Assembly: GCA_938024995.1 (NCBI GenBank)
Contig: CALJDU010000041.1
Span: forward strand, 1 to 64,000
From: an uncultured bacterium
GTDB taxonomy: Bacteria > Myxococcota_A > Polyangia > Polyangiales > Houyiibacteriaceae
Reading direction: 5' to 3'
DNA: 64,000 nt
Shown here: piece by piece, positions 1 to 45,392 of the stretch
Layout of the letters: each line of letters begins with the position of its first letter
How positions within the stretch are numbered: position 1 is the first letter of the stretch
Notes under the pieces: model-generated
The model's database searches: none
The model's input: only the letters and a program-made list of their open reading frames with translations
What the model was told of the DNA's origin: nothing
Made by a program: the position numbers and the translations under genes

Positions 1-2
1 GC

Positions 3-290
3 GGCCCTCCACAGCTCGGCGGCCCTCCACAGCTCGGCGGCCCTCCTCAGCTCGGCGGTCCTCCTCAGCTCGGCGGCCCGCCTCAGCTCGGCGGTCCTCC
101 TCAGAGAAGCGCCCCTCCTCAGCTTGGCGGTCCCCCGCAGCTCGGCGGTCCTCCTCAGCGTGGCGGTCCGCCTCAGCTCGGCGCGTCGACCCTGGGTGGT
201 CCTCCGCAGTTCGGCGCCCCTCCGCAGCACGGCGGCCCTCCTCCGCTGAACGGTCCCCCGCCTCTCAGTCGTCCGCCTCAGCAGGGTGCT
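3..290 (+). repeat. 18-bp coding tandem repeat (ggcggtcctcctcagctc; GGPPQL)
   Basis: Many near-identical 18-nt units visible from 1 to about 180, degenerating to about 290. Confidence 0.85.
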
Positions 291-656
291 CCGAGCTTCG
301 GCGCGCCGGCGTTCGGACAGTCACAAGGCGCTCCTCCACCGCTTCCCGGTCGTGGCGGAATGGCCGCCGGCGCGCGACCCACGCTCTACGTGATCTTCAA
401 TGGTCAAAAGATCCCCGTCTCCAAAGACGAGTTCGTTATCGGTCGCGGCTCCAAGACCGCCGACCTGCCGATCAAAGACGGCAACATCTCTCGACGACAT
501 GCCGCGGTGGTCTTTCAGGGCGGCGCCTTCTGGATGAAGGATCTCGGCAGCACCAACGGCGTCGAGTTCCACAGCCGACGCATCGACAGCAAACGCATCG
601 ACGAAGGCGACGTCTACCAAATCTGCGACTACGAGCTGCGGTTCACCTACCAGTAG
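3..656 (+). CDS. FHA-domain protein with N-terminal GGPPQL hexapeptide repeats (5'-truncated by window)
   Basis: Frame open from window start to TAG at 654-656; N-terminal (GGPPQL)n translated from nt 3, then FHA core GRGSKTADLPIKDGNISRRHA...GSTNG. Confidence 0.85.
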   Translation, partial: GPPQLGGPPQLGGPPQLGGPPQLGGPPQLGGPPQRSAPPQLGGPPQLGGPPQRGGPPQLGASTLGGPPQFGAPPQHGGPPPLNGPPPLSRPPQQGAPSFGAPAFGQSQGAPPPLPGRGGMAAGARPTLYVIFNGQKIPVSKDEFVIGRGSKTADLPIKDGNISRRHAAVVFQGGAFWMKDLGSTNGVEFHSRRIDSKRIDEGDVYQICDYELRFTYQ

Positions 657-776: not shown

Positions 777-1214
777 ATGAGGGTGGGCGAGGCAAGAGCG
801 GACGAGGTGATCGATGACCTCCACGCGTGGTTCGCGACCCAAGACGCACGGATCCACATGATCACGTTTCCAAACGTGATCACGGACGAGAGCCTGGAGA
901 ACTACTTCAACGCGATCCATACGGTCTACCGTCGACTCTCACCGAGGCAGACCTTCATCATGGACATTCGTCAGCTAGCGCGTAACTCGGTCACCGCGGT
1001 GCAGCGCCGACGCTACGCCGAGTTTGAGCAGGAGGTCGAAGCGCTAGACCGCGAGTACATCGCCGGAGCCGCGATCATTGCGGGGAGCAGTCTTCAGCGT
1101 GGTCTCGTCACGGCGCTCTTCTGGCTCAAGCCGCCGGTCTACGCCTACTCGCTTTGTCGAACGAACGGGCGAGCGATGGAGTGGTGTCGCGCCCGCCTTT
1201 CCGACCCAACGTAG
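777..1214 (+). CDS. Conserved hypothetical protein (STAS-like myxobacterial family?)
   Basis: 145-aa ORF; clear paralogue of the interrupted gene at 1734-2278 (ITFPNVITDE.../VQRRRYAEFEQEVE/LQRGLVTALFWL). Confidence 0.7.
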   Translation: MRVGEARADEVIDDLHAWFATQDARIHMITFPNVITDESLENYFNAIHTVYRRLSPRQTFIMDIRQLARNSVTAVQRRRYAEFEQEVEALDREYIAGAAIIAGSSLQRGLVTALFWLKPPVYAYSLCRTNGRAMEWCRARLSDPT

Positions 1215-1372: not shown

Positions 1373-1669
1373 ATGACAATGAAGACCTTCACCAAGTGGA
1401 TCGCCGCGTTTGCCATGATGTCCTCCGTGCTCGCGATCGCGGGCCCGGCCGAAGCGAAGTGCTTCGGGTTCCGCGACAACAACATTCGCGTATGCATCGA
1501 GGGTCACAACAACGCCGCGCGCAACCAAGCGACGCGCGTGTGCGAAGACGTCACCGGCAGCGACTGCCGCATCAGCGGTGACAGCGGCTCCACCTGCCAG
1601 CGGTCGAGCAACATCCGATGCTACGACGCCGACGGAGATGAGCAGCGCCGGATCGAGCTCGACGACTGA
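1373..1669 (+). CDS. Small secreted Cys-rich protein
   Basis: 98 aa; signal peptide (KTFTKWIAAFAMMSSVLAIAGPAEA) and six Cys in the mature part; GGAG ribosome-binding site before ATG. Confidence 0.7.
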   Translation: MTMKTFTKWIAAFAMMSSVLAIAGPAEAKCFGFRDNNIRVCIEGHNNAARNQATRVCEDVTGSDCRISGDSGSTCQRSSNIRCYDADGDEQRRIELDD

Positions 1670-1733: not shown

Positions 1734-2278
1734 GTGAGGCGTTCTCAACCAACGGCGCGCGTTGATGAACTCCACGACTGGTTTGAGACGCTTCATGAGC
1801 GCATCCATCTCGTGACGTTTCCCGGTGTGTTCTCGGACGAAGACATGGACCGATACTTCGACGCGGTCCGCGCGTCGTACACGTGCCTGCCGCTGAAGCT
1901 GACGTTCATCATCGATATTGGAAAGCGACGAAGGAGCGCTGAGCGGAGCGAACATGGGTGGGAGGCTCCAAATCATTTACTTATTTGGAGGGAGGGGCGG
2001 ACAGCCCCTCCAAGAATATTCGGATGCTCACGACGAGGTCACCGACACCTGTGCAGCGACGGCGTTTCGCGGAGTTCGAAAAGGAGGTTGAGGACCGCGA
2101 TCGGGAGTTCACCTCAGGAACCGCGATCATCGCCAAGAGCGGCCTTCAGCGAGGGCTCATCACCGCCATCTACTGGCTCGCGCCGCCGGTGTACCCGTAT
2201 CGCATCTGTCGTTCCGTGGCCGAAGCCGTCGACTGGTGCAAGGGTCAGCTCGATACCGTCGACGCGCGTGTCGCGTAA
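1734..2278 (+). pseudogene. Paralogue of 777-1214 interrupted by a 101-bp insertion
   Basis: N-terminal half in frame of 1734, C-terminal half in frame of 1958; removing 1920-2020 restores a continuous ~147-aa ORF aligned to the 145-aa paralogue. Confidence 0.85.
1920..2020 (-). mobile_element. Small non-autonomous hairpin element (MITE/REP-like) with 5-bp duplication
   Basis: Inserted relative to paralogue; 'atatt' at 1915-1919 and 2016-2020; hairpins ctccaaat/atttggag (1966-1990) and ggaggggc/gcccctcc (1991-2011); reverse strand shares cccaYNgttcgctYcgctc core with other intergenic copies. Confidence 0.75.
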
Positions 2279-44342: not shown

Positions 44343-45392
44343 TCACTCTCGCGTCAGACACAGCGCGCGGCTCTGCCAGTGCACCCCGCCTCGGACGTCA
44401 CGCATCACGAAGAAGAAGTTCACGACTTGGCCGCCCGCCGGGATCTCCTCGACTTCGGGGAGCACCCAGTTCACGTCCGCGGCGCCGCCGTCTTCATCTT
44501 CATCAATGAAGATAAACTGAGATGAGAACACGCCATGTGTCGAGTAGACCGAGATGCGCATGGTCTCTTGTCGCTCCACGGTCTCTGGAGGATCGCCCAC
44601 CTCGGTCATGAACGTCTCGCGGCTGTCTGGTGTCGCGTTGACCACGATCTCGATCTCTTCGTCGGTGCCTCCTGTGTGGACCACATTCGGCAGGGTCGGG
44701 TTCTCCGCACACGTGGTCGGTAGCGCGGGCGCCGCGTCGACCCACGGGACATCGTTGATGGCGACCTCTTGGATCTCCGGGTGGGCGTTCTGGCGACCCA
44801 GATCGAGCGCGACCGTGAGGATCGCGATACGTCCGCGTCCCTCGCCCGCGCATGGGTTGCCGCTCTCAAAGACCCCCTCCAGATCGGTCGAGATGCGCCC
44901 GCCAAAACAGAACGCGCCAAACATCAGGACCTGGTCCTGACCGTCGTCGAGCTCGGTCGGGATGGTGAGCGGGAGCTCGATCTCTCCGTTGGCGGGAACG
45001 GTAGGAGGGTTGATCCCGAACGCGAACGGTTCGCCTTCGCATTGACCTGGACCGAACGCGGTCCCCGCCGGGATGCACGCGAAGTACGCGCTCCCGATCG
45101 GTTCGATCGCGTCGGGACTCGCGACCAACCACCGCGTGGTCACCGCGTCTCCCGGCTGCGGCCAGGACTGCGTCGCGTCTGCGTCCACCTCTGCGCGGAC
45201 GCCAAGGATTCGCGTCTTGTCGATCAGCGAGCCGGGGTCGACCGTGTCTCCGCAGCCGACGCACACCAGCGCCAGCACCACAATCGAAAGCAGAGACTTC
45301 CTTCCGCACAAGCGCTCAGGTGCGGGTTCCGGAGCGACACGGAGAACTCGTGGCGATGGCGCCGACGGTGCGGAACACAAGATGCGGCTCAC
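44343..45392 (-). CDS. Predicted lipoprotein encoded with TonB-dependent receptor
   Basis: LALVCVGCG lipobox; start overlaps receptor stop by 4 nt. Confidence 0.65.
   Translation of the reverse strand: MSRILCSAPSAPSPRVLRVAPEPAPERLCGRKSLLSIVVLALVCVGCGDTVDPGSLIDKTRILGVRAEVDADATQSWPQPGDAVTTRWLVASPDAIEPIGSAYFACIPAGTAFGPGQCEGEPFAFGINPPTVPANGEIELPLTIPTELDDGQDQVLMFGAFCFGGRISTDLEGVFESGNPCAGEGRGRIAILTVALDLGRQNAHPEIQEVAINDVPWVDAAPALPTTCAENPTLPNVVHTGGTDEEIEIVVNATPDSRETFMTEVGDPPETVERQETMRISVYSTHGVFSSQFIFIDEDEDGGAADVNWVLPEVEEIPAGGQVVNFFFVMRDVRGGVHWQSRALCLTRE

What the first reader, a model, noticed from the sequence alone, without database searches (positions are those of the whole stretch)
1915..2020. 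101-bp hairpin element inserted in a duplicated gene with a 5-bp target duplication; exact excision restores the frame
The paralogue at 777-1214 reads ...FIMDIRQLARNSVTAVQRRR. The copy at 1734 reads ...FIIDI, then 101 foreign nt (1920-2020), then IRMLTTRSPTPVQRRR in another frame. 'atatt' flanks both sides (1915-1919, 2016-2020). The insert carries two 8-bp perfect hairpins and no ORF, as expected for a MITE-like, trans-mobilised element. It also supplies an in-frame ATG (1954) to the downstream half, so a chimeric product is possible.
Basis: seen in the sequence. Interest (0 to 1): 0.72.

Follow-up and report, generated by a model that had tools for sequence, protein, structure and literature searches.

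The report
Hairpin jumping repeat in myxobacterial gene
A 101-letter piece of DNA with two hairpins has jumped into and broken a duplicated gene; it is one of about 75 related copies in this genome and belongs to a hairpin-repeat class that occurs across the myxobacteria and is not in the RNA-family library, but what moves it is not yet known.

Summary
The insert is real and mobile. The genome holds 75 related copies; 30 young ones, mostly 94-100% identical to this one, are 101-102 bp and bounded by TA on both sides (29/30 left, 29/30 right; TA is 1.1% of dinucleotides). Removing the insert but one target copy restores the frame here and in two other genes (an ABC1/UbiB-type kinase, a vWA-like lipoprotein). 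The duplicated target is TA (at most ATA), not 5-bp ATATT: some copies have ATAT left but ATAA or ATAG right. The claimed in-frame ATG (1954) is out of frame; the in-frame start is GTG 1958. The two hairpins are the core of a repeat class in Myxococcota (own and related genera, Sandaracinaceae, Kofleriaceae, Nannocystaceae) with strong compensatory base changes and no Rfam match. A second family (B, >50 copies) and a third (C) share the TA boundaries and terminal motifs, so one machinery probably moves all three in trans. No autonomous copy was found. Candidate enzymes: HUH/Y1 RAYT-like proteins (seven loci here, not flanked by this repeat), or a TA-targeting IS630-type transposase (one gene, different ends). 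Defining features of REP/REPtron elements and IS630 MITEs are each partly unmet.

The parts
777..1214 (+). intact paralogue of the interrupted gene (145 aa, hypothetical; no significant Pfam match)
1734..1919 (+). 5' part of the interrupted second copy
   Evidence: 47% identity to paralogue residues 12-64
1916..1917 (+). left TA of the target (within ATATT)
   Evidence: TA in 29/30 young copies
1918..2016 (+). family-A element body TTGGAAAG...CCAAGAA (99 nt; net insertion 101 with one TA)
   Evidence: 52 BLAST matches in own genome; 75 by covariance model
1966..1990 (+). hairpin 1: CTCCAAAT, 9-nt loop, ATTTGGAG
   Evidence: compensatory changes at 3 pairs within genome, 6 of 8 pairs across genera
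1991..2011 (+). hairpin 2: GGAGGGGC, GGACA loop, GCCCCTCC
   Evidence: compensatory changes across genera
2017..2018 (+). right TA
   Evidence: TA in 29/30 young copies
2018..2278 (+). 3' part of the interrupted gene, other frame; GTG 1958 inside the element is its in-frame start
   Evidence: 59% identity to paralogue residues 64-141; ORF 1958-2278

Best explanation
1918-2016 is a non-autonomous mobile DNA element (family A). It inserted at a TA, mostly in an ATAT context, leaving TA on both sides, and so turned one copy of a duplicated gene into a probable pseudogene (insertion shown; loss of function inferred). Adjacent and tandem copies share one TA boundary, so the ends of existing copies serve as new targets, which builds the composite arrays seen (pattern shown, process inferred). 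Families A, B and C share terminal motifs (TA then TYG at the left, CARAGAA then TA at the right), so one enzyme acting in trans probably moves all three (inferred). The conserved double hairpin near the right end is the likely recognition feature (inferred). The most likely enzyme is of the HUH/Y1 single-strand type, related to TnpA-REP/RAYT proteins, with TA as the cleavage dinucleotide where known TnpA-REP enzymes use CT or CA (inferred, about 45%). The class also occurs in other Myxococcota, where the hairpin core is followed by an A-rich stretch and then CT or CA in many copies.
For: Copies. TA on both sides and variable next base. Frame restoration in three genes: the window gene; an ABC1 kinase gene at C53 whose two halves match PF03109 positions 63-126 and 131-239; a vWA-like lipoprotein gene at C53, which reads VAIGSPPW when one TA is left. 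Uninterrupted homologues. Pre-insertion sites for family B inside repeat F: CTCAAAAA-TA-CTCGG and GCCCG-TA-TCGCG without B, the same sequences split by B elsewhere. Shared boundary in tandem and mixed arrays. Structure kept by compensatory change. Spread in Myxococcota. RAYT-like genes: seven loci in own genome, 48 of 58 genomes searched. A is asymmetric with no long terminal inverted repeat. Published TnpA-REP enzymes cleave at CT, or CT and CA, beside the hairpin (PMC8266576).
Against: No RAYT or IS630 locus of the own genome carries the core, and of 45 RAYT/IS630 loci tested in all genomes only one IS630 locus does. RAYT-like genes also occur in genomes without the core. No strand bias relative to contig GC skew (A 16:12, B 14:15, weak test), though single-strand transposons usually show one. 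The GTAG tag of REPs is not present as such. TA flanking both sides is also what IS630/Tc1-type transposition leaves.
Confidence: 0.72

Rival explanations
1. Strict MITE of the IS630/Tc1-mariner type: a DDE transposase in trans cuts the ends and inserts at TA with a 2-bp duplication.
For: TA on both sides; one IS630-type (DDE_3) gene in the genome, E 2.6e-24, itself bounded by C-TA-G; in G011 and G026 the core sits in units bounded by CTAG or GTAC; in G026 the core lies directly beside the only IS630-type gene.
Against: The own IS630 ends (TA then GTGC...CGGAAGTTCG) do not match A, B or C. A lacks terminal inverted repeats. G003, with 62 copies, has no DDE_3 match. Young copy L029 has CG left and TA right, unlike a fresh duplication.
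Confidence: 0.3
2. The double hairpin is a functional RNA or DNA structure kept by host selection (for example tRNA-operon processing or transcription control) and copied by recombination rather than transposition.
For: Strong compensatory changes across genera; many older copies between tRNA genes of a 30-tRNA array, and one beside a tRNA array in G005.
Against: Young copies disrupt genes exactly at TA with frame restoration; copies in the tRNA array occur in both orientations; the other loci scanned have no tRNA nearby; no Rfam match.
Confidence: 0.15
3. Assembly artefact or chance resemblance.
For: Draft genome, 119 contigs, several ends inside such repeats.
Against: Window copy lies inside a contig; distinct unique flanks at about 30 places; homologous repeats in independently assembled genomes.
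Confidence: 0.02

Closest known systems
REP/BIME elements and REPINs with TnpA-REP (RAYT) transposases
   Same: Short hairpin repeats without ORF, many copies, mostly between genes, tandem and mosaic arrays; HUH relatives in the genome; in many relatives of the class CT or CA follows the structure, as at TnpA-REP cleavage sites (PMC8266576, PMC3116915).
   Different: No GTAG/CGTC tag at the hairpin foot, no RAYT gene flanked by the repeat, insertions at TA, length about 100 bp with two unlike adjacent hairpins.
IS630/Tc1-mariner MITE-like repeats (Correia, RUP, ERIC types; from general knowledge)
   Same: Non-autonomous, about 100 bp, TA flanks on both sides, can disrupt genes.
   Different: No long terminal inverted repeat in A, asymmetric ends, no autonomous element with matching ends.
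IS200/IS605-derived palindrome-associated elements (from general knowledge)
   Same: Hairpins near the ends, preferred short target, no ORF.
   Different: No IS200/IS605 element with such ends found; no strand bias seen; target is only TA/ATAT.

Membership tests
REP/BIME (REPtron) elements | GTAG or CGTC tetranucleotide at the foot of the hairpin | tested here: not met
   Four bases before the conserved GGGAGG in 123 copies: TCGT 39, CGTT 17, TCGC 11, CGTC 8; no GTAG among those listed. Some older own copies and some relatives do have GTAG a few bases further upstream, so this is a weak lead only
REP/BIME (REPtron) elements | RAYT gene flanked by the same repeat | tested here: not met
   Core model finds nothing in any RAYT locus among 45 RAYT/IS630 loci; its one hit is an IS630 locus
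REP/BIME (REPtron) elements | HUH/Y1 TnpA-REP-type transposase in the genome | tested here: inconclusive
   Seven loci at E 1e-5 to 1e-7, all below the NF047646 cut-off; HUH and tyrosine motifs present
REP/BIME (REPtron) elements | hairpin structure kept by compensatory change | tested here: met
IS630/Tc1 MITE | TA target duplicated on insertion | tested here: met
   pre-insertion sites; an element-borne right TA cannot be told from a true duplication
IS630/Tc1 MITE | terminal inverted repeats | tested here: not met
   A: TTGGAAAGCG vs TTCTTGGAGG; B has a 10-bp repeat offset by 4 nt
IS630/Tc1 MITE | autonomous transposon with the same ends | tested here: not met
   the only DDE_3 gene has other ends; no pair of A or B ends around a gene-length insert was seen
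IS200/IS605 derivative | IS200-type transposase (PF01797) over cut-off in the genome | tested here: not met
   only sub-threshold matches, E 3e-4
Any described RNA family | Rfam match | tested here: not met

The most novel reading that the evidence does not exclude
A phylum-wide class of multi-hairpin mobile repeats of Myxococcota is moved by a HUH-type enzyme, and in this lineage its cleavage and target dinucleotide has switched from CT/CA to TA, a natural retargeting that started fresh bursts of at least three element families sharing one machinery.
Probability: 0.22. Interest if true: 0.72.

Novelty: new variant of a known kind. Interest (0 to 1): 0.47.

Why it matters
It gives a clear case of a recent bacterial mini-element with pre-insertion sites and frame-restoring insertions, in a phylum for which the searches made here found no description of such repeats. 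The hairpin core is conserved by compensatory change across many myxobacteria, so it is a general feature of these genomes, including their tRNA arrays. Because A, B and C share ends, the missing mobiliser becomes a well-posed question, and how REP-like repeats move at all is a long-standing open problem.

Tried and rejected
IS200-type transposase as mobiliser: no PF01797 match over cut-off in own genome. RAYT genes as linked partner: none carries the core. Own IS630 as partner: ends differ. De novo repeat listing for a longer autonomous copy in about 2 Mb of the genome: none seen. Strand bias against GC skew: none, low power. First named-genome scan with the own-genome sequence pattern: no match; a pattern drawn from relatives gave at least 120 stretches. 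Viral contigs and plasmids: no match. GTAG as a general tag: rejected after the phylum-wide count. G011 units begin CTAGT and some carry GAAGTTCGTT at the same offset as the own IS630 left end; GAAGTTCG is common (143 in 2 Mb) and G011 units also have other ends, so this is kept only as a lead.

Full report
Observation. The window carries a duplicated gene: an intact copy at 777-1214 and a second copy at 1734-2278 that changes frame in the middle. The two parts of the second copy match the paralogue end to end (residues 12-64, 47%; 64-141, 59%), and between them lies the foreign DNA. Homologues of the protein occur at many places in own and related genomes; those that span the site align across it in one open frame, while only the window copy is split. 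The sequence details hold: ATATT on both sides, two perfect 8-bp hairpins, no ORF of its own. The DNA strand folds better than all 200 shuffles. Two details do not hold: ATG 1954 is out of frame with the downstream half (GTG 1958 is in frame), and the duplication is shorter than five bases.

Copies. BLAST finds 52 matches in the own genome and a covariance model built from 27 copies finds 75. Thirty young copies have both ends readable. Left of the body TTGGAAAG... stands TA in 29 of 30 (each time ATA), right of ...AGAA stands TA in 29 of 30, followed by T in 26, A in 2 and G in 1. TA makes up 1.1% of dinucleotides, and ATAT occurs about once per 4 kb. So the element inserts at TA, strongly preferring ATAT, and the repeated part is TA or ATA.

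Insertion proof. Three genes are interrupted in a way that leaving one TA resolves: the window gene; an ABC1-type kinase gene at C53:38110 whose halves match PF03109 at 63-126 and 131-239 (this gene also shows a frame break further upstream); and a vWA-like lipoprotein gene at C53:70307. For family B, a second repeat family found next to A (more than 50 copies), pre-insertion sites exist inside another repeat, F: CTCAAAAA-TA-CTCGG and GCCCG-TA-TCGCG occur without B and, elsewhere, split by B. Some B copies differ from TA on one side, and one insertion into F (L082) does not fit a simple TA duplication without a small further change. A third family, C, has the same outer pattern. When A, B and C touch each other or stand in tandem they share one boundary, so ends of existing copies are reused as targets.

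The wider class. Within the genome, older copies differ in hairpin 1 by matched changes on both sides. In other genera the model finds 62 copies in G003, 23 in G016, 22 in G026, 14 in G011, 4 each in G025 and G049 and one in G035, and none in 47 of 58 genomes, which serve as negative controls. Across genera 9 of 15 pairs show changes on both sides; the covariation score is 0.39 against 0.105 for shuffles and at most 0.08 for slid structures (that alignment was fitted to the structure, which flatters it). No Rfam family matches. In many relatives the core is followed by an A-rich stretch and CT or CA, where the young families here have TA.

What moves it. No autonomous copy with these ends was seen. 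Candidates in the genome are seven loci of RAYT-like HUH proteins in two groups (331 aa and about 550 aa), below the family cut-off but with HUH and tyrosine motifs, and one IS630-type DDE gene. The RAYT-like genes have their own flanking palindromes and none carries the core; the IS630 ends differ from A, B and C. In G026 the core lies directly beside the only IS630-type gene. The asymmetric ends of A, the hairpins near its right end, the CT/CA pattern in relatives and the absence of IS630 from G003 favour a HUH enzyme; the TA flanks favour IS630. I put these at about 45% and 30%. No strand bias was found.

Comparison with the known. It works like REP/BIME/REPIN repeats or MITEs but meets only part of either definition: no GTAG tag and no linked RAYT, no terminal inverted repeats and no autonomous partner. 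Paper searches found no description of these repeats in myxobacteria; the library held is not complete.

Limits. The genome is a 94% complete draft and a mobiliser could be missing. About 2 Mb was read directly; the rest was searched by query. No close sister strain was available, so empty sites at orthologous loci could not be shown; only one genome of the genus is held.

Noticed in passing
window 45302-45380: Diverged copy of the second repeat family (B, 89% over 79 bp) at the start of a predicted lipoprotein gene on the minus strand.
   Followed up: partly
L041 (G000:C6:125700-135200): Array of 30 tRNA genes with about a dozen older double-hairpin repeats between them, in both orientations.
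   Followed up: partly
L095, L097, L098, L099 and L096, L100, L101, L102: Two groups of long RAYT-like HUH proteins with their own flanking palindromes (GAGTACTACGTACTC; GACTTCGTCTC), missed by Pfam Y1_Tnp at its cut-off.
   Followed up: partly
L253 (G000:C24, about 1033-2560 in locus): IS630-type element inserted at C-TA-G next to GTACCTAGTAC-type palindromic repeats.
   Followed up: partly
L040 (G000:C12:10395-10461): Family-A copy cut off in the loop of hairpin 1 after 67 bases at 100% identity, probably inside a coding region.
   Followed up: no
L010 and L013: Two family-A insertions each lie at the 3' end of an exonuclease III-like gene; at L010 the element appears to supply the new stop codon.
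   Followed up: no
window 1-300: Tandem coding repeats (PPQLGG-like) upstream of an FHA-like domain protein ending at 656.
   Followed up: no
window 1373-1669: Small secreted-looking protein (98 aa, signal peptide, cysteines) between the two paralogues.
   Followed up: no
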